From Candidatus Siliceabacter maunaloa (GTDB lineage Bacteria; Actinomycetota; Thermoleophilia; Solirubrobacterales; Solirubrobacteraceae), in the NCBI GenBank assembly GCA_024330185.1, contig JANDLV010000004.1, forward strand, positions 1-64,000: a stretch of 64,000 nucleotides of DNA, written 5' to 3'. Made by a program: the position numbers and the translations under genes. The stretch's first letter is position 1, and each line of letters opens with the position of its first letter. Below are positions 5,985 to 58,436 of the stretch, piece after piece. The notes below the pieces were generated by a model, which was not told the origin of the DNA, did no database searches, and worked only from the letters and a program-made list of their open reading frames with translations.

Positions 5985-6105
5985 AAGGGCGCCGCGGCGG
6001 GGAGTTCCTGACTTCCGGAGCGGCGATCTCCGGTCACAGTGGCGCGACCGCGCCGGGCTTGCACCGGCTTCCTCGCACCGCCACGCTGACGCCGGCGATG
6101 CTATC
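5985..6105 (-). promoter_or_regulatory. Cobalamin riboswitch
   Basis: The leader of the phosphatase-cobN-chelatase unit contains the conserved core of an adenosylcobalamin riboswitch on the minus strand: GAAGCCGGTGCAAGCCCGGC (6072 down to 6053), then the hallmark GCCACTGTGACCG (6043-6031), then a B12-box-like AGTCAGGAACTC (about 6012-6001). Order and spacing match the family. It sits 36-150 nt before the ATG at 5949, with GGGGAGG between, so control at ribosome-binding-site access is plausible. Outer boundaries are approximate because the closing stem was judged by eye. Confidence 0.9.
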
Positions 6106-34399: not shown

Positions 34400-37300
34400 G
34401 TGAACCGCTCCGATCCGCTGGCCGCCTTCACCCCGACGGTGCGGGAGTGGTTCGGCCGGGCCTTCGCGGGGCCGACGCCCGCCCAGGCCCTTGCGTGGCC
34501 GGCCATCGCCACGGGCGAGCACGTGCTCATCTCCGCGCCCACCGGCTCGGGCAAGACGCTGGCGGCCTTCCTGTGGGGGTTGGATCGCCTCGCGGGTGAC
34601 GTCGACCGCAGGTCGACGCTTGCGGCGACCGAAGGGCGAAACCGGTCTCCGCGCCTCGTCTACGTCTCCCCCCTCAAGGCGCTGGCCTACGACGTGGACC
34701 GCAACCTGCGCGCGCCGCTGCGGGGCATCGGCGCGGACCTGCGCGTGGGCATCCGCACGGGCGACACGCCGCCACGCGAGCGCGAGGCGATGCGCCGCAC
34801 GCCGCCCGACATCCTCATCACCACGCCCGAGTCGCTGTACCTGATGCTGACCTCGCGTGCGCAGAGCATCCTCACGGGGGTCGAGGCGGTGATCATAGAC
34901 GAGGTCCACGCGGTGGCCGCCACCAAGCGTGGCGCCCACCTCGCGCTCACGCTGGAGCGCCTGGCCGACAACGCCGAGGACGACCCGCAGCGCATCGGGC
35001 TCAGCGCCACGCAGAACCCGCTCGAGGAGGTCGGACGCTACCTCGTCGGCCCGCGGCGGCGGTGCCGGATCGTCGACGCCGGGGTGACCAAGGAGCTGGA
35101 CCTGCGCATCCACGTGCCGGTCGAGTCGATGGTCGAGCCCGAGCAGCCCGACGCTGCCGCCGACCCGTTGGACCCCTCCGTGGGCAGGGAGGCCACGCGG
35201 CGCTCCATCTGGCCGGCCATCTATCCCGAGCTGCTGGCCCAGGTCCGCGAGCACCGCTCGACGATCATCTTCGTCAACAACCGCCGGATGGCCGAGCGCC
35301 TCGCCCTGCGCCTCAACGAGCTGGCGGAAACGACCCCGGGGCCCGGCTCCGGCGGCCAGGGAGCGACGGTCTCGTCCTCGGGGCCCCCCGCCTCCGCCAC
35401 TGGCGACATCGCCCGCGCCCACCACGGCTCTCTGGCCCGCGAGGAGCGCACGATCATCGAGGAGCAGCTCAAGGCCGGTGAGCTGCCGTGCCTGGTGGCC
35501 ACGAGCTCACTGGAGCTGGGCATCGACATGGGCGCCGTGGACCTCGTGCTGCAGGTCGAGTCGCCGAAGTCCGTGGCGCGCGGGATCCAGCGCATCGGCC
35601 GCGCGGGCCACAACGTCGGCGACGTCTCCAAGGGGCGGATCTTCCCCAAGTTCCGCGCCGACCTCCTGGAGTGCGCGGTGGTGGTCAAGCTCATGCGCGA
35701 GGGGCGCATCGAGCCGACGGTCGTGCCGCGCAACCCGCTCGACGTGCTCGCCCAGCAGGTCGTGGCCATGGCCGCGGCGCGCGATACCGATGCGGCTCAC
35801 GCCGCTGGCACAGGGGAGGGAGAGCCGCTCGCCGTGGACGACCTCCACGCGCTGGTCACGCGTACGCACTCCTACGCTGAGCTCCCCCGGCCCCTGCTGG
35901 AGAACGTGCTGGACATGCTCGACGGGCGCTATCCCTCGTCCGAGTTCGGCGACCTGCGCCCGCGCATCGTGTGGGACCGCGTCGGGGGCACGATCCGTCC
36001 GCGCAAGGGCGCCCGCCAGCTCGCGGTGACCAACGCCGGCACCATCCCCGACCGCGGGCTGTTCTCCGTCGTGCTGCCCGACGGCCGTCGCGTCGGCGAG
36101 CTGGACGAGGAGATGATCTACGAGGCACGCGCCGGCCAGACGTTCCTGCTGGGGACCTCGTCGTGGCGCATCGAGGAGATCGGCCGCGACCGCGTGGTGG
36201 TCACCCCCGCGCCCGGGGTGCCAGGCGCGGTGCCCTTCTGGCGCGGCGACTCCGTCGGGCGACCCAAGGAGCTGGGCGAGGCCATCGGCGCGTTCAGTCG
36301 CTGGGCGGTGGACGAGACGCCCGAGGCCCTGGCCGAGTCGCACGACCTCGACGAGCGCGCTGCGCGCAACCTCGTGGACTTCCTGCGCGAGCAGCAGGCG
36401 GCCACCGGCGTGGTGCCGTCCGACCGCGCGATCGTGGTGGAGCGCTTCCGCGACGAGATCGGCGACTGGCGCCTGTGCATCCTCAGCCCGTTCGGCGGGC
36501 GCGTGCACGCCGCGTGGTCGCTGGCCCTCAGCGCGCGCATCCGTGACCAGCATGGGCTGGAGAGCGACGCGATCTACAGCGACGACGGGATCATCGTCCA
36601 CCTCCCCGACGCCGACACCAATGCGGCGTTCGCCGCTGGCACAGGTGAGGCTCCCGGCGCGGATCTCGTGCTCGTCGAGCCCGACGAGCTGGAGGATCTC
36701 GTCGTCGCCGAGCTGGGCTCCAGCGCGCTGTTCGGGGCGCGCTTCCGCGAGAACGCGGCCCGCTCGCTGCTCATCCCCCGCGCGTACCCCGGCAGGCGCA
36801 CGCCGCTGTGGCAGCAGCGGCTGAAGGCCCAGAACCTGCTGGAGGTGGCCAAGCGCTACGGCGACTTCCCGGTGATCCTCGAGACCTACCGCGAGTGCCT
36901 GCGCGACGTGCTCGACCTGCCCGGTCTGCACGACTTGCTGACCAAGCTGCACCGCCGCGAGCTGTCGCTGGTCGAGGTCGAGACGCCCACGGCGTCGCCG
37001 TTCGCCTCCTCGCTGCTGTTCGACTACGTCGCGACCTACATGTACGAGGGCGACACGCCCAACGCCGAGCGCCGCGCCGCCGCGCTGTCGCTGGACCGTG
37101 ACCTGCTGCGCGAGCTGCTGGGCCAGGAGGAGCTGCGCGACCTGATCGACCAGGGCGCGCTGGAGCAGGTGGAGGCCGACCTCCAGCACCGCTCCGACCG
37201 CACGCGGGCGGAGACCGCCGACGCGCTGGGCGACGTCCTGCGCCGGGTGGGGGACCTCACGGAGGCCGAGGTGGCCGACCGCGTGATCGACGGCGTCGAC

Positions 37301-38995
37301 CCCGGCGCGCTCATGGCCGCCCTGGAGCGCGAGCGCCGCGCGATCCGCCTGCGAGTGGGCGGCGAGGAGCGCTGGGTGGCCGCCGACGACGCCGGCCTCT
37401 ACCGCGACGCCCTGGGCGCCGTCCCGTCCGGTGGGCTTCCCGAGGCCTTCACCGCCGACGTGCCCGACGCGCTTGCCAGGCTCGCGAGCCGCTACGCGCG
37501 CACGCACGGCCCCTTCACCACCGGCGAGCTGCGCGAGCGCTACGGGGTCGATCCGAGCGCCGCTTTGGCCGCCCTGGAGACGGCCGGTGACCTCGTGCGG
37601 GGCGAGCTGCGCCCCGGCGGGACCACCCGCGAGTGGTGCGACGCCGAGGTGCTGCGCCGCCTGCGCCGCGCCTCGCTGGCGGTGCTGCGCAAGGAGATCG
37701 AGCCCGCCGACCAGCGCGCCTTCGCCGCGTTCCTGCCCGGCTGGCAGGGCGTGGATCGTCACGCCGCCGCGGGCGCCGGCGTGGAGCGCCTGCGCGAAGC
37801 GCTCGTGCCCCTGCAGGGGCTCGCGCTCCCCGTGGAGGTGTGGGAGCGCGACGTGCTGCCGCGGCGCACGGGCGCCTACTCGAGCACCTGGCTGGACGGC
37901 CTGTGCTCCAGCGGCGAGCTGGTATGGGTCGGCGCGGGCGCGCTGGGGCGCAACGGCGGGCGCGTCGCGCTGTACTTCCGCGAGGACGCCGGCGCGATCG
38001 GCCCGCCGGCACTGCCGCGGGGCTTCGAGGCGCCGGCCGAGGCCGAGCACGGGGCCCTGCGGGCGCGCCTCGGGCAGTCGCCGTGCTTCTTCACCGACCT
38101 GCTGGCCGAGCTGGACCTGGCGCCCGAGGCCATTCAGGAGGCGTTGTGGGACCTCGTGTGGGCGGGCGAGGTCACCAACGATGCGTGGGCGCCGCTGCGT
38201 GCGCCGCGGCTCACGCTGGCCCGCGCCCAGCGCCAGCGCCAGGCGCCCGCGCGCGGCGGGCGGGCACGGCGCTTCGGCGCACGACGCTCCGCCGCGCAGC
38301 CGACCCTCCAGGGCCGGTGGTCGCTGACGACCTCGCTCTTCGCGGCCGCCGGTACCGGTGCGGCCGAAGGCCGCCCCGGCGAGCCGACGCCCGCCGAGCG
38401 TCGGCGCACACTGGCCGAACTATTGCTGGAGCGCTACGGAATCGTGACCCGCGAGCAGGTCCTGGCCGAGGGCATCCCCGGCGGCTTCTCGGGCCTCTAC
38501 GACGCCCTCTCCCAGCTCGAGACGCTCGGCGTCTGCCGCCGCGGCTACTTCGTCGAGGGCCTGGGCGGCGCGCAGTTCGCGCTGCCCGGCGCCGTCGAGC
38601 GCCTGCGCGCGCAGCGCAACCCCGAGGAGGGCGAGCCGGTCGTCCTGGGCGCTGCCGACCCCGCCCAGGCCTATGGCGCCGCGCTGCGCTGGCCGCGCAG
38701 CGAAGCGGGCCGCCGGCCCGGGCGTACGGGCGGCGCCCACGTCGTGCTGGCCGGCGCACAGCCCGTGCTCTTCGTCGAGCGCGGCGGCAAGGGCCTGCTC
38801 ACGCTCGTCGAGGCCGACGACCCCCGCCTGCGCCGCGCCCTCGAGGCGCTGGCCACCTTCGTCACCGGCGCCGCCGGCCGGCGCCTGGCGCTCGAGCGCG
38901 TCGACGGCGAGCCCGTCCTCGGCTCCGGACTGGAGCCCCTTCTGGTCGAGCTGGGCTTCCGTGCCGGCCCCAGGCGGCTCACGCTCTCAGCATGA
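34400..38995 (+). CDS. lhr: Lhr-family ATP-dependent helicase
   Basis: A 1531-residue superfamily 2 helicase of the Lhr group, involved in DNA repair in mycobacteria and close in size to those (about 1500). Walker A APTGSGKT (residues 46-53), YVSPLKALAYDV, ITTPESLYLML, DEVH box IIDEVHAVAATKRGAHLAL, LSATQNPLEEV, ATSSLELGIDMG and QRIGRAGHNVG complete the helicase motifs. A DUF4915/WH-type C-terminal region follows. Two inserted segments encode D-T-[DN]-A-A-x-A-A-G-T-G-E (residues 462-473 and 739-750), and another variable insert lies at about 69-84. GTG at 34400 follows TACCCT by 6 nt. Its stop is ATGA-coupled to a 21-codon frame and then to a Nudix gene. Confidence 0.93.
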   Translation: MNRSDPLAAFTPTVREWFGRAFAGPTPAQALAWPAIATGEHVLISAPTGSGKTLAAFLWGLDRLAGDVDRRSTLAATEGRNRSPRLVYVSPLKALAYDVDRNLRAPLRGIGADLRVGIRTGDTPPREREAMRRTPPDILITTPESLYLMLTSRAQSILTGVEAVIIDEVHAVAATKRGAHLALTLERLADNAEDDPQRIGLSATQNPLEEVGRYLVGPRRRCRIVDAGVTKELDLRIHVPVESMVEPEQPDAAADPLDPSVGREATRRSIWPAIYPELLAQVREHRSTIIFVNNRRMAERLALRLNELAETTPGPGSGGQGATVSSSGPPASATGDIARAHHGSLAREERTIIEEQLKAGELPCLVATSSLELGIDMGAVDLVLQVESPKSVARGIQRIGRAGHNVGDVSKGRIFPKFRADLLECAVVVKLMREGRIEPTVVPRNPLDVLAQQVVAMAAARDTDAAHAAGTGEGEPLAVDDLHALVTRTHSYAELPRPLLENVLDMLDGRYPSSEFGDLRPRIVWDRVGGTIRPRKGARQLAVTNAGTIPDRGLFSVVLPDGRRVGELDEEMIYEARAGQTFLLGTSSWRIEEIGRDRVVVTPAPGVPGAVPFWRGDSVGRPKELGEAIGAFSRWAVDETPEALAESHDLDERAARNLVDFLREQQAATGVVPSDRAIVVERFRDEIGDWRLCILSPFGGRVHAAWSLALSARIRDQHGLESDAIYSDDGIIVHLPDADTNAAFAAGTGEAPGADLVLVEPDELEDLVVAELGSSALFGARFRENAARSLLIPRAYPGRRTPLWQQRLKAQNLLEVAKRYGDFPVILETYRECLRDVLDLPGLHDLLTKLHRRELSLVEVETPTASPFASSLLFDYVATYMYEGDTPNAERRAAALSLDRDLLRELLGQEELRDLIDQGALEQVEADLQHRSDRTRAETADALGDVLRRVGDLTEAEVADRVIDGVDPGALMAALERERRAIRLRVGGEERWVAADDAGLYRDALGAVPSGGLPEAFTADVPDALARLASRYARTHGPFTTGELRERYGVDPSAALAALETAGDLVRGELRPGGTTREWCDAEVLRRLRRASLAVLRKEIEPADQRAFAAFLPGWQGVDRHAAAGAGVERLREALVPLQGLALPVEVWERDVLPRRTGAYSSTWLDGLCSSGELVWVGAGALGRNGGRVALYFREDAGAIGPPALPRGFEAPAEAEHGALRARLGQSPCFFTDLLAELDLAPEAIQEALWDLVWAGEVTNDAWAPLRAPRLTLARAQRQRQAPARGGRARRFGARRSAAQPTLQGRWSLTTSLFAAAGTGAAEGRPGEPTPAERRRTLAELLLERYGIVTREQVLAEGIPGGFSGLYDALSQLETLGVCRRGYFVEGLGGAQFALPGAVERLRAQRNPEEGEPVVLGAADPAQAYGAALRWPRSEAGRRPGRTGGAHVVLAGAQPVLFVERGGKGLLTLVEADDPRLRRALEALATFVTGAAGRRLALERVDGEPVLGSGLEPLLVELGFRAGPRRLTLSA
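35783..35818 (+). repeat. In-frame palindromic microelement, copy 2 (in lhr)
   Basis: Encodes DTDAAHAAGTGE in the lhr frame; hairpin core GCGGC-TCAC-GCCGC. Differs from copy 1 at only four of 36 positions. Confidence 0.8.
36614..36649 (+). repeat. In-frame palindromic microelement, copy 3 (in lhr)
   Basis: Encodes DTNAAFAAGTGE in the lhr frame. The stem is extended to GCGGCG-TT-CGCCGC, a 6-bp hairpin. The flanking ACCAATGCGGC and GCCGCTGGCACAGG are shared with copy 1. Confidence 0.8.
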
Positions 38996-48530: not shown

Positions 48531-50159
48531 ATGCCTCATAAGGAACTGAAGTACGACGTCGACGCCCGCAATGCCCTCCAGCAGGGTGTCGACGCGGTCG
48601 CCAACGCGGTCAAGGTCACACTCGGCCCCAGGGGCCGCTACGTGGTGCTCGACAAGAAGTTCGGCGCACCGACCATCACCAACGACGGCGTCACCATCGC
48701 TCGTGAGATCGATGTGGAGGACGTCTTCGCCAACCAGGGCGCCCAGCTCGTGCGCGAGGTCGCCACGGCGACCAACGACGTCGCGGGCGACGGCACCACC
48801 ACCGCCACGGTGCTCGCGCAGCAGATCGTGCGCGACGGCCTGAAGAACGTCACGGCGGGCGCGAACCCGCTCGCGCTCAAGCGTGGCATCGAGGTGGCCG
48901 TCGACGCGGTCGTCGAGAGCATCGCCAAGCAGAGCAAGGACGTCGCGGGCAAGGATCAGATCGCCCGTGTCGCCACCATCTCGGCCGGCGACGACGACAT
49001 CGGCGACGTGATCGCCGACGCCATCGAGAAGGTCGGCAAGGACGGCGTGGTCAACGTCGAGGAGGGCCAGACCTTCGGCATGGACCTCGAGTTCACCGAG
49101 GGCATGCAGTTCGACAAGGGCTACATCTCGCCCTACATGGTCACCGACCAGGACCGCATGGAGGCCGTGCTCGAGGATCCCTACATCCTCATCGCGAACT
49201 CCAAGATCGGCTCTGTGCGCGACGTGCTGCCCGTCCTCGAGGCGGTCATCCAGTCGGGCAAGCCGCTGCTGATCATCGCCGAGGACGTCGAGGGCGAGTC
49301 CCTGGCGACCCTGGTGGTCAACAAGCTGCGCGGCACCTTCACCGGCGTGGCCGTCAAGGCGCCGGGCTTCGGCGATCGCCGCAAGCGCATGCTGGAGGAC
49401 ATCGCGATCCTCACGGGCGCCGAGGTCATCACCGAGGACCTGGGCCTCAAGCTGGAGAACACCCAGCTCTCGCAGCTCGGCCGCGCCCGGCGCGTGGTCG
49501 TGGGCAAGGACGAGACCACGGTCATCGACGGCTCGGGCGACACCGACGCCATCAAGGGTCGCATCACCCAGATCAAGAACGAGGTCGAGAACACCGACTC
49601 TGACTTCGATCGCGAGAAGCTCCAGGAGCGCCTGGCCAAGCTGTCGGGCGGCGTGGCCGTCGTGAAGGTCGGCGCGGCCACCGAGACGGAGATGAAGGAG
49701 AAGAAGCACCGCGTCGAGGACGCCCTCCAGGCGACCCGTGCGGCGCTCGAGGAGGGCATCGTCCCCGGCGGCGGCGTCGCGCTGATGCGCGCCACCGACG
49801 CCGTCAAGCTCGACTCCTTCGACGGCGACGAGAAGACGGGCGCGAAGATCGTGCTCCGTGCGCTGGAGGAGCCGCTGCGCCAGATCGCCCACAACTCGGG
49901 CCTGGAGGGCTCCGTGGTGGTCAACGACGTGCGCAAGGCCAAGAAGGGCTTCGGCCTGGACGCCGCGACCGGCGAGATCGTCGATCTCGTCGACGCCGGG
50001 GTCATCGACCCGGCGATGGTGACGCGCTCGGCGCTGCAGAACGCGGCCTCGATCGCCAAGAACATCCTCACCACCGAGGCCATCGTGGCCGAGATGCCCG
50101 ACAAGGACGGCGGCGGCAACGGCGGCGGCGGCATGCCCGACATGGGCGGCATGATGTAG
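48531..50159 (+). CDS. groEL: Chaperonin GroEL
   Basis: A 542-residue group I chaperonin subunit. [31 protein letters not shown], the ATP-binding [24 protein letters not shown] and the closing Gly/Met-rich tail ([16 protein letters not shown]) are typical. It folds proteins in an ATP-driven double ring with GroES. It lies 24 nt after groES with an AGGA ribosome site. The Gly/Met tail indicates the main housekeeping copy, not the His-rich GroEL1 of mycobacteria. Confidence 0.97.
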
Positions 50160-50220
50160 GTGTGACATCGCGCGAAGGCCGCCCGCTTGCGGCGGCCGGA
50201 GCGCGAAACACGTTCTCCCG

Positions 50221-56422: not shown

Positions 56423-57562
56423 TCAGCCGGCCATCGGCAGGCTCATGCCCGTGGCCGCCTCGGCGGCCGGCGGCTCGACGTGCAGGACCGGGAGGTCCAT
56501 GGGCATGAGGGCGATGAGGCCGCGGGCGGCCTGGCGCACGGCCTGGGCGGCGGGGTCGTCGGGGTCGACGGCCACCAGCGGGGTGCCGGCGTCGGCCTGC
56601 TCGCGCAGCGGCATGGTCAGGGGGACCCGGGCCAGCAGCGGCACGTCGAGCTCGTCGGCCAGCGCTTGGCCACCGCCCTCGCCGAAGATGGGGTAGCGCT
56701 CACCGTCGGGGGCGGTGAAGCCACTCATGTTCTCGACCACCGCGGCGACCTCCAGCGAGACCTTGTGGGCCATCTCGGCCGCGCGGCGCGCGACCTTCTG
56801 CGCGGCGGGCTGCGGCGTGGTGACGATCAGGAACCTCGCCTGGGGCAGGAGCTGGGCCAGGGTCATCGACACGTCGCCGGTGCCCGGGGGCAGGTCGATG
56901 AGCAGGTAGTCCAGTGCGCCCCAGTCGACGTCCTGGAGGAACTGGGTCAGCGCCTTGTGCAGCATGGGTCCGCGCCAGACCACGGCCGAGTCCTCCGCCA
57001 CGAAGAAGCCGATCGACATGACCTTCACGCCTCCGGCCTCCAGGGGGAGGATCTTCTTCTGGGGGGAGACCGGCGGGCGATCGCTGCCCAGGCCGAACAT
57101 GCGGGGGATGGAGTAGCCCCAGACGTCGGCGTCGAGCACGCCGACGCGCTTGCCCTCGGCGGACAGGGCCGCGGCGAGGTTGGCGGTCAGGGTGGACTTG
57201 CCCACGCCGCCCTTCCCCGAGCCGACGCAGATGACGTTGTCCACCCGGGCCAGCGCGCCGGTGGGCAGCCCGCCGGAGCGCCCCAGCTTCTGCTGCAGTG
57301 AACCCTTCTCCTGGTCGGAGAGGACGTCGAAGGAGACGTTGACGTGGGTGATGCCCTCGACCTTGCGGGCCTCGCCGGCCACGGAGGTCTGGAAGTGGTT
57401 GCGGACCGGGCAGCCCGCGGTGGTCAGCGACACCATGATGTCCGCCACGCCGTTGGCGTGGATCTCGATCGAGCGGACCATGCCGAGCTCGACGATGCTC
57501 TGACGGAGCTCGGGGTCGATGACGGCCTCCAGGGCCTTCATCACGTCGTCTCTGGTGGGCAT
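56423..57562 (-). CDS. mrp: Mrp/ApbC-type iron-sulfur carrier ATPase with DUF59
   Basis: A protein of about 379 residues in the Mrp/NBP35 group, a scaffold for Fe-S cluster delivery. The N-terminal DUF59 domain (about 1-85) has VIDPELRQSIVELGMV and TTAGCPVRNHFQ (with the DUF59 Cys); the P-loop domain has the deviant Walker A CVGSGKGGVGKSTLTANLAAAL (about 115-125), YLLIDLPPGTGD and VVENMSGF. The CxxC of many Mrp proteins is not seen. ATG 57562 is preferred because TAGGAT (57575-57570) covers the ATG at 57571 and lies 7 nt before it; using 57571 would add M-V-R. Confidence 0.92.
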   Translation of the reverse strand: MPTRDDVMKALEAVIDPELRQSIVELGMVRSIEIHANGVADIMVSLTTAGCPVRNHFQTSVAGEARKVEGITHVNVSFDVLSDQEKGSLQQKLGRSGGLPTGALARVDNVICVGSGKGGVGKSTLTANLAAALSAEGKRVGVLDADVWGYSIPRMFGLGSDRPPVSPQKKILPLEAGGVKVMSIGFFVAEDSAVVWRGPMLHKALTQFLQDVDWGALDYLLIDLPPGTGDVSMTLAQLLPQARFLIVTTPQPAAQKVARRAAEMAHKVSLEVAAVVENMSGFTAPDGERYPIFGEGGGQALADELDVPLLARVPLTMPLREQADAGTPLVAVDPDDPAAQAVRQAARGLIALMPMDLPVLHVEPPAAEAATGMSLPMAG

Positions 57563-57587
57563 ACGGACCATCCTAGGAAAGGCCGGA

Positions 57588-57610
57588 GGGGCGCCCTTGC
57601 GGGGCGCCCC
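57588..57610 (-). terminator. GC-rich hairpin between the hendecad-repeat gene and mrp
   Basis: GGGGCGCCC (57588-57596) pairs with GGGCGCCCC (57602-57610) over 9 bp around a 5-nt loop. Reading on the minus strand it is followed by TCCGGCCTTTCC. It may end the upstream gene, or control mrp. Confidence 0.6.
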
Positions 57611-57694
57611 TATTGGCTCTCGCCTCCAGTCCTCTCAAGTTCGGACCTCCGGGAGACCGGCTTTCGCCTTCGGTCCTCTCAAGTTCGGACCTCC
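57607..57694 (-). repeat. Two tandem 44-nt structured repeats
   Basis: Minus-strand units 57694-57651 and 57650-57607 share their first 20 nt exactly (GGAGGTCCGAACTTGAGAGG) and differ at three of the next 16. Each can form GGTCC...GGACC (second unit GGACT, a G-U pair) and a second hairpin closed by a GNRA loop: GGC-GAAA-GCC in unit 1, GGC-GAGA-GCC in unit 2. The changes keep both structures. It starts 8 nt after the stop of the hendecad-repeat gene. Confidence 0.75.
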
Positions 57695-57701
57695 AGCGAC
57701 G

Positions 57702-58436
57702 CTACACGCGCTGGGACGCCTTCGTGGCGACCTGCGTGCCGGCGGTCAGCCCGCTCTGCACGGCGTTCTCGACGCGGCGGCCGGCCAGCTCGGCGGTCTT
57801 GGCCACCGTGGTGCCCTCGCGCTCGACGTCGCGGCGGAACGAGCGCACCTCGCGCTCGACGTCGCGGCGCAGCGAGCGGACCTCGCGCTCCACGCGGGTG
57901 CGGTTGCGCTTGATCTCGCGCTGGACGCGGTTGCGGCGCTGGCGCAGATCGCGCTCCAGGCGGGTGCGGGTCTTCTTGACCTCGCGCTCGACGCGGTTGC
58001 GAGCGGTGGTGCCGCGACGCTCGAAGCGGCGCAGCTCGGTGCGGACCTTGGCGCGCGACGTGTAGGTCGTGCGCAGACCGTCGACCGTGGAGACGACGCT
58101 CTCACGAGCGACCAGCGCGGCGCCAACAGGGATCAGGACGCCCTTCTCTGCGACCTCGGCGACCTGGTGCAGCGGCCCGCGGGCCTCGGCCTTGGCGGTA
58201 CGCGCCGTCGAGCGGGTGCTCTGGCTGGCCGAGGTGGTCTTGCGCTGGGTCGTGCGCTTGGTCTTGGTCGCGGCACGGCTGCGCGCCTGGCTGCCCTCAC
58301 GGGCGGCACGGGTCTGCGCGCCCTTCTTGGCCGTGGTGCTGCGCTTCGTGGCAGCGGCCTCGCGCTGCGCGGAACGCGCCGCGGGGGTCGTGGTGCTGCG
58401 GGTGGTGGCGGTCTTGGTGTCGGTGTTCTCGGCCAT
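57702..58436 (-). CDS. Basic coiled-coil protein with six 11-residue repeats
   Basis: A 244-residue protein, not a named family. Residues 1-90 are an Ala/Thr/Lys/Arg-rich, disordered, histone-H1-like tail (ATKRSTTAKKGAQTRAAREG). After a short hydrophobic segment (KGVLIPVGAALVARESVVS) comes a run of six 11-residue repeats (about 146-211), such as RNRVEREVKKT, RTRLERDLRQR, RNRVQREIKRN, RTRVEREVRSL, RRDVEREVRSF. Hendecads form right-handed coiled coils or amphipathic helices that bind membranes or DNA. The ATG at 58436 has AAGGAG upstream. It could bind nucleoid DNA or be surface-associated like heparin-binding haemagglutinin. Confidence 0.75.
   Translation of the reverse strand: MAENTDTKTATTRSTTTPAARSAQREAAATKRSTTAKKGAQTRAAREGSQARSRAATKTKRTTQRKTTSASQSTRSTARTAKAEARGPLHQVAEVAEKGVLIPVGAALVARESVVSTVDGLRTTYTSRAKVRTELRRFERRGTTARNRVEREVKKTRTRLERDLRQRRNRVQREIKRNRTRVEREVRSLRRDVEREVRSFRRDVEREGTTVAKTAELAGRRVENAVQSGLTAGTQVATKASQRV

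What the first reader, a model, noticed from the sequence alone, without database searches (positions are those of the whole stretch)
57607..57694. Tandem structured RNA-like repeats with GNRA hairpins upstream of mrp
Two adjacent 44-nt units on the minus strand share a 20-nt identical head. Each can form a GGTCC/GGAC(C,U) stem and a GGC-GNRA-GCC hairpin; the substitutions (GAAA to GAGA; C to U pairing with G) preserve structure. Tandem similar domains followed by a strong GC hairpin and a gene start look like a tandem aptamer plus expression platform. Against this, a TAGGAT -10-like hexamer sits between the repeats and the mrp start, so the array could instead be a 3' UTR element of the hendecad-repeat gene. 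In plus orientation CTCAAGT could also be read as a promoter element, but no plus-strand gene follows.
Basis: partly seen in the sequence, partly recalled or inferred. Interest (0 to 1): 0.75.

Follow-up and report, generated by a model that had tools for sequence, protein, structure and literature searches.

The report
Stop-codon-tagged mobile hairpin repeat family
The two repeats are copies of a roughly 53-letter hairpin element that has spread through the genomes of one soil-bacterium family, usually sitting exactly at the end of genes and often supplying their stop signal, so they are not a riboswitch for the next gene.

Summary
The two units are one full (57652-57704, minus strand) and one headless tandem copy of a dispersed palindromic element, (G)TRACGTCG-N-CCGNAGG-[hairpin]-CCGNAGG-N-CGAAAC. 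A covariance model finds 108 matches in this 3.79-Mb genome and matches in 39 of 146 genomes of its family (Solirubrobacteraceae); in a 296-genome phylum sample only members of that family matched. The hairpin covaries (7 of 13 pairs with two-sided changes; 0 of 500 shuffles). Of 106 copies examined, 40 have the element's TRA/TAG as the in-frame stop codon of the upstream gene and 22 more start within 10 nt after a stop. Some copies sit in frame inside genes: Lhr-type helicase (this window), RNase R, HisF. At this locus the element lies between the stop codon of an uncharacterised gene and a separate GC hairpin; mrp lies beyond. Best reading: a REP/RPE-like mobile or formerly mobile hairpin, transcribed as a 3'-UTR/intercistronic structure. 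It matches no Rfam family, and most element-rich genomes checked lack the Y1 (RAYT-type) transposase. An atpG-atpD copy in 13 of 21 genomes suggests retention, possibly a function.

The parts
57652..57704 (-). Full-length copy of the dispersed element (unit 1); its first three bases TAG (57704-57702) are the stop codon of the upstream gene
   Evidence: model R1 74.2 bits, E 4.9e-24; in frame with the upstream gene
57615..57651 (-). Unit 2: headless tandem duplicate of the element (no TRACGTCG)
   Evidence: 92% identity over 36 nt; model match 57624-57651, E 1.4e-7
57587..57611 (-). Separate strong GC hairpin AGGGGCGCCC-CGCAA-GGGCGCCCCU, probable terminator of the upstream gene
   Evidence: -23.1 kcal/mol, z -4.6; a matching GGGGCGCCC-GAAA-GGGCGCCCC hairpin stands in the same spacer of G001
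57702..58436 (-). Upstream host gene, 244-aa hendecad-repeat (phasin-like) protein, no Pfam or NCBIfam match
56423..57562 (-). Downstream gene, Mrp/ApbC-type iron-sulfur carrier P-loop NTPase; not linked to the element
50163..50218 (+). Another copy, 6 nt after the groEL stop (groEL 48531-50159), before a GC terminator
34597..34651 (+). Another copy, in frame inside an Lhr-type helicase gene (34400-38995), encoding GDVDRRSTLAATEGRNRSP between motifs I and Ia

Best explanation
The repeats are one full and one partial copy of a dispersed, non-coding palindromic element (53-55 nt) that has multiplied as a mobile or formerly mobile sequence within Solirubrobacteraceae. It is like REP/RPE repeats but is a separate family. 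Shown: many near-identical copies, covarying hairpin, family restriction, lineage-specific presence, strong orientation and stop-codon bias, in-frame intragenic copies, tandem duplication. Inferred: insertion at or just before gene ends is favoured or best tolerated because the element's 5' edge, GTRA, can serve as an in-phase stop codon, while its other two frames are mostly open and so tolerated inside protein loops. Inferred: in the RNA it forms a hairpin a few nt after the stop codon, between gene and terminator or between genes of an operon, where it can affect mRNA decay, processing or ribosome release, mildly in most places. Unknown: the mobilising enzyme.
For: Copies: 61 blastn alignments and 108 model matches in the genome. 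Distribution: 39 of 146 family genomes, 16 of 25 genera, with uneven copy number inside genera, e.g. 32, 1 and 0 in genus g22; only family members matched in a 296-genome phylum sample; named hits are Solirubrobacteraceae. Structure: 7 of 13 pairs change on both sides, 29 cells against 8.0 shuffled, 0 of 500. Position: 40 of 106 copies have their TRA/TAG as the host stop and 22 more lie 1-10 nt after a stop; 81 same-strand against 14 opposite, where random spacer placement predicts 43% same-strand (p 1e-17); in-phase copies have G before the stop in 34 of 40 against 39% of other genes (p 1e-8) and TAA stops in 16 of 40 against 26 of 454 (p 6e-9). Lineage-specific insertion: the G001 orthologues of nadA, pntB, a polyprenyl synthetase, a quinone reductase, a sugar transferase, an S13 peptidase and others lack it at the stop, and at murA G001 carries an inverted pair of another subfamily. 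In-frame insertions in Lhr helicase, HisF and RNase R absent from relatives.
Against: No mobilising gene found: Y1 transposases are absent from G000, G001, G010, G018, G030 and G035, though G027 has two, and reverse-transcriptase and IS110 presence do not visibly track copy number. No target-site duplication could be defined. The atpG-atpD spacer holds a copy in 13 of 21 genomes, more than neutral mobile DNA would predict, which argues for a function or an insertion hotspot. Gene calls rest on a simple codon-usage caller.
Confidence: 0.8

Rival explanations
1. A selected cis-acting RNA: a 3'-UTR or intercistronic hairpin, bound by a protein or RNase, kept after specific genes to stabilise or process mRNA (for example to separate atpG from atpD).
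For: atpG-atpD site occupied in 13 of 21 genomes of seven genera, and the only match of G022 is there; groEL site shared by G000, G001 and G072; stems kept by compensatory change; placement between stop codon and ribosome-binding site or terminator.
Against: Most copies tested are lineage-specific and follow unrelated genes; in-frame copies inside proteins cannot act as UTR elements; 107 of 146 family genomes have no detected copy.
Confidence: 0.25
2. A family of intrinsic transcription terminators that have been copied around the genome.
For: Hairpin right after stop codons, pyrimidine-rich tail, same strand as the upstream gene.
Against: T-rich positions lie 7 or more nt after the stem; copies sit inside the atp operon; at this locus and at groEL a separate GC hairpin with terminator look follows the element.
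Confidence: 0.1
3. Tandem aptamer riboswitch controlling mrp.
For: Tandem similar domains followed by a hairpin and a gene start.
Against: Host genes unrelated to each other; no Rfam match; no such element before mrp in G001; the element begins at the stop codon of the upstream gene.
Confidence: 0.02
4. Member of the described CGTC-tagged REP superfamily.
For: The letters CGTC follow the TRA in nearly every copy; mostly downstream of genes, with intragenic copies, as in PMC3733652.
Against: In described CGTC REPs the CGTC is unpaired, the stem is 8-9 bp starting with A/T pairs and the tail is CCA; here the TC of CGTC is paired (32 of 32), stems have internal loops and the tail is AAACC (features from PMC3733652).
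Confidence: 0.05

Closest known systems
Rickettsia palindromic elements (RPE)
   Same: Short palindromic repeats in unrelated genes, with in-frame insertions into protein-coding genes (PMC10969869; here).
   Different: RPEs are ~150 bp in the review's account and encode a conserved peptide; here 53-55 nt, mostly extragenic at stop codons, frame not conserved, different host phylum.
CGTC-tagged REPs
   Same: Small palindromic repeats, downstream of genes, some intragenic, no associated transposase, carry CGTC at one end (PMC3733652).
   Different: CGTC partly paired here, GNA/GNA internal loop, different tail, head-to-tail tandem arrays; inverted head-head dimers prevail in CGTC REPs; Actinobacteria are not mentioned in that paper.
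GTAG-tagged REPs / REPINs with RAYT transposases
   Same: Dispersed hairpins with uneven copy number, often after genes.
   Different: No constant GTAG tag at one end and no Y1 transposase in six element-rich genomes.
Enterobacterial small mobile sequences RU-1/RU-2/RU-3
   Same: Small repeats that can fuse to gene 3' ends and replace the stop codon (PMC2759123).
   Different: Those are 103-168 bp MITE-like sequences; this element is a third to a half of that size and carries the stop codon at its own 5' edge.

Membership tests
CGTC-tagged REP | Unpaired terminal CGTC motif | tested here: not met
   CGTC present, but T6 and C7 pair with A43 and G42 in all 32 sequences
CGTC-tagged REP | Stem of 8-9 bp opening with A/T pairs, loop 4-5 nt, CCA tail | tested here: not met
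   5+8 bp with internal loops, G/C-rich, AAACC tail; the 4-nt loop alone fits
CGTC-tagged REP | Mostly inverted (head-head) dimers; head-to-tail rare | tested here: not met
   Arrays are head-to-tail in G000
GTAG REP / RAYT system | GTAG tag and RAYT (Y1) transposase in the genome | tested here: not met
   PF01797 absent from G000, G001, G010, G018, G030, G035; no constant GTAG end
Rickettsia palindromic element-like repeats | Palindromic repeat inserted in frame in unrelated protein-coding genes | tested here: met
   Lhr helicase, HisF and RNase R insertions absent from orthologues
Rickettsia palindromic element | Sequence relationship to a known RPE family | not tested
   No RPE consensus was aligned; only structure and behaviour compared
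Known Rfam RNA family | Match above gathering score | tested here: not met
   none at this locus
Riboswitch (tandem aptamer) | Conserved association with metabolically related downstream genes | tested here: not met
   Unrelated host genes; absent before mrp in G001
Intrinsic terminator | GC hairpin directly followed by a U tract | tested here: not met
   Stem ends at position 43; T reaches 50% only at positions 51 and 53
REP-like mobile element | Demonstrated transposition or presence/absence between close strains | tested here: inconclusive
   Sites differ between G000 and G001, but these are different species and no clean target duplication was found

The most novel reading that the evidence does not exclude
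A new class of mobile hairpin that targets or carries stop codons: it inserts at gene ends, replacing the native stop with its own GTRA, moves by a mechanism without a Y1 transposase, and has been domesticated between atpG and atpD of the ATP synthase operon, where the hairpin helps set relative expression of the two subunits.
Probability: 0.2. Interest if true: 0.75.

Novelty: new variant of a known kind. Interest (0 to 1): 0.52.

Why it matters
No paper or Rfam family describing this element was found in the held sources. It is abundant in part of a poorly studied soil family, and it couples three things usually seen apart: dispersed REP-like spread, supply of stop codons to dozens of genes, and in-frame insertion into conserved enzymes. 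Presence/absence near single-copy genes makes it a usable lineage marker, and the recurrent atpG-atpD site gives a directly testable case of a selfish hairpin possibly turned into an mRNA control element. For annotation, proteins of this family may carry small element-derived tails or loops.

Tried and rejected
Rfam, both thresholds: no RNA family. RAYT/Y1 transposase: absent from six element-rich genomes. Reverse transcriptases and IS110 transposases: presence does not visibly follow element number (judged by eye, no statistic computed); one IS110 copy in G030 begins 15 nt after an element, but its two other near-identical copies have none, so the element is not part of that IS. Viral, plasmid and phage collections: no copies. 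A conserved peptide in one frame was considered and dropped: the reading frame shifts between the 53-nt and 55-nt forms. Integron attC-like site and selenocysteine SECIS element were considered from general knowledge and dropped: no RYYYAAC/GTTRRRY ends, and TAA/TAG are used as well as TGA. Literature searches found no description of this repeat.

Full report
What is there. On the minus strand, 57704-57652 reads TAGCGTCGCTGGAGGTCCGAACTTGAGAGGACCGAAGGCGAAAGCCGGTCTCC, followed by a second copy without the head (57651-57615) and a strong GC hairpin (57611-57587) before mrp.

It is a dispersed repeat. blastn with the locus gives 61 alignments in the 3.79-Mb assembly; a covariance model built from 36 copies gives 108 matches at E<=0.1 in the genome, including tandem units and possibly a few chance hits at the weak end. 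Several copies lie at contig ends, so the true number may be higher. Arrays of two to five units are head to tail with period 36-63 nt, and the unit boundaries differ from array to array, as expected from independent local duplication.

Distribution. Model R2, built from 32 gap-free 55-nt copies of several genera, matches 39 of 146 genomes of the same family (16 of 25 genera) and only genomes of this family in a 296-genome phylum sample. An exact-pattern scan with organism names returns Solirubrobacteraceae only, including the complete genome of Svornostia abyssi J379 (its assignment to this family is my own knowledge). Copy number is uneven inside genera (32, 1 and 0 in g22; 27 and 1 in g12). 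None in the viral, plasmid or phage collections.

Structure. Consensus: T R A C G UCG N CC - GNA - GGNCN..GCUUGC..NGNCC - GNA - GG N CGA AAC. The outer stem pairs in 99.4% of cells; the inner stem in 82%, the rest being mostly G-A/A-G juxtapositions next to the CUUG loop. Seven of 13 pairs have two-sided changes, 29 such cells against a shuffled mean of 8.0, and every measure but one exceeds all 500 shuffles (further pair types: 1 of 500); sliding the partner destroys the signal. At single-sequence level the fold of one unit is unremarkable (z about -1): the evidence for structure is comparative. Structure conservation alone does not tell RNA from single-stranded DNA function.

Position. For 106 copies (65 from this genome, 41 from five relatives) I called genes with a simple codon-usage model. 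In 40 the element's first three bases are exactly the in-frame stop of the upstream gene; in 22 the stop is 1-10 nt upstream, about half of them TAG followed by the element's own TRA; 4 overlap out of phase, 15 are further away, 14 have an opposite-strand upstream gene, 10 were called intragenic, 1 has no upstream gene. Random placement in spacers predicts 43% same-strand; observed 81 of 95 (p 1e-17). In-phase copies have G before the stop in 34 of 40 against 39% in other genes, and TAA stops in 16 of 40 against 26 of 454. So GTRA belongs to the element, or is its target, rather than being whatever stop the gene had.

Insertion history. At G001 orthologues of nadA, pntB, a polyprenyl synthetase, a quinone reductase, a sugar transferase, an S13 peptidase, a nitrilase-like gene and the gene before ppa, no element stands at the stop. 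At murA G001 has an inverted pair of a different subfamily. In G001 the hendecad-mrp spacer has a different hairpin with GGA/GGA loops and a GC hairpin matching the one at 57587-57611. Clearest are insertions inside genes: RNase R between its catalytic and S1 parts (three tandem copies in this genome, one in G001, none in eight other genomes), HisF (G001, antisense), and the Lhr-type helicase of this window (34597-34651) between motifs I and Ia, in a loop of variable length. Protein names here are from sequence recognition, not a family scan. These are in frame and resemble RPE and intragenic REP insertions (PMC10969869, PMC3733652). Some of the ten called intragenic cases (L125, L131, L028, L168) are weak or depend on the start call; I rely only on the three checked against orthologues.

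Possible function. The atpG-atpD spacer carries the element, sometimes doubled, diverged or collapsed, in 13 of 21 genomes, between the atpG stop and the atpD ribosome-binding site; in G022 it is the only match. groEL carries it in G000, G001 and G072, between stop and terminator. This recurrence means ancient retention or a strong insertion preference, and is the main evidence for a role. A terminator role is unlikely inside the atp operon and where a separate GC hairpin follows.

Mobilisation. Y1 transposases are absent from six element-rich genomes; reverse transcriptase and IS110 do not visibly track copy number. The mechanism is open.

Verdict. A new REP/RPE-like family with unusual stop-codon linkage, here in the 3' UTR of the upstream gene; not a riboswitch and not tied to mrp. 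Mobility is inferred from distribution, not observed.

Noticed in passing
34597-34651: In-frame copy of the element inside an Lhr-type helicase gene (34400-38995), adding or replacing a loop between motifs I and Ia.
   Followed up: yes
50163-50218: Copy of the element 6 nt after groEL, followed by a GAGGGCCCGGC..GCCGGGCCCTC terminator-like hairpin of a kind seen after groEL in most relatives.
   Followed up: partly
6002-6074: Cobalamin riboswitch (RF00174, 37.3 bits, minus strand), the only Rfam match of the window.
   Followed up: no
L247, L250, L262, L258 (atpG-atpD spacers): Nested or collapsed copies: truncated units followed by a new TRACGTCG head in G007, G151 and G004, and in G069 a copy that has lost its inner hairpin.
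   Followed up: partly
L181 and L188 (G001): The motif GGGTCCCCAGGTCG follows the stop codons of two unrelated G001 genes, perhaps a second repeat family.
   Followed up: no
L208 (G030): An IS110-type element begins about 15 nt after a copy; two near-identical IS copies elsewhere have no copy next to them.
   Followed up: partly
57702-58436: Basic hendecad-repeat protein with no Pfam or NCBIfam match, conserved next to mrp in G001 (73% identity over the matched part).
   Followed up: no
57570-57575: TAGGAT 8 nt before the mrp ATG (57562) would fit a leaderless mrp transcript starting after the repeats.
   Followed up: no
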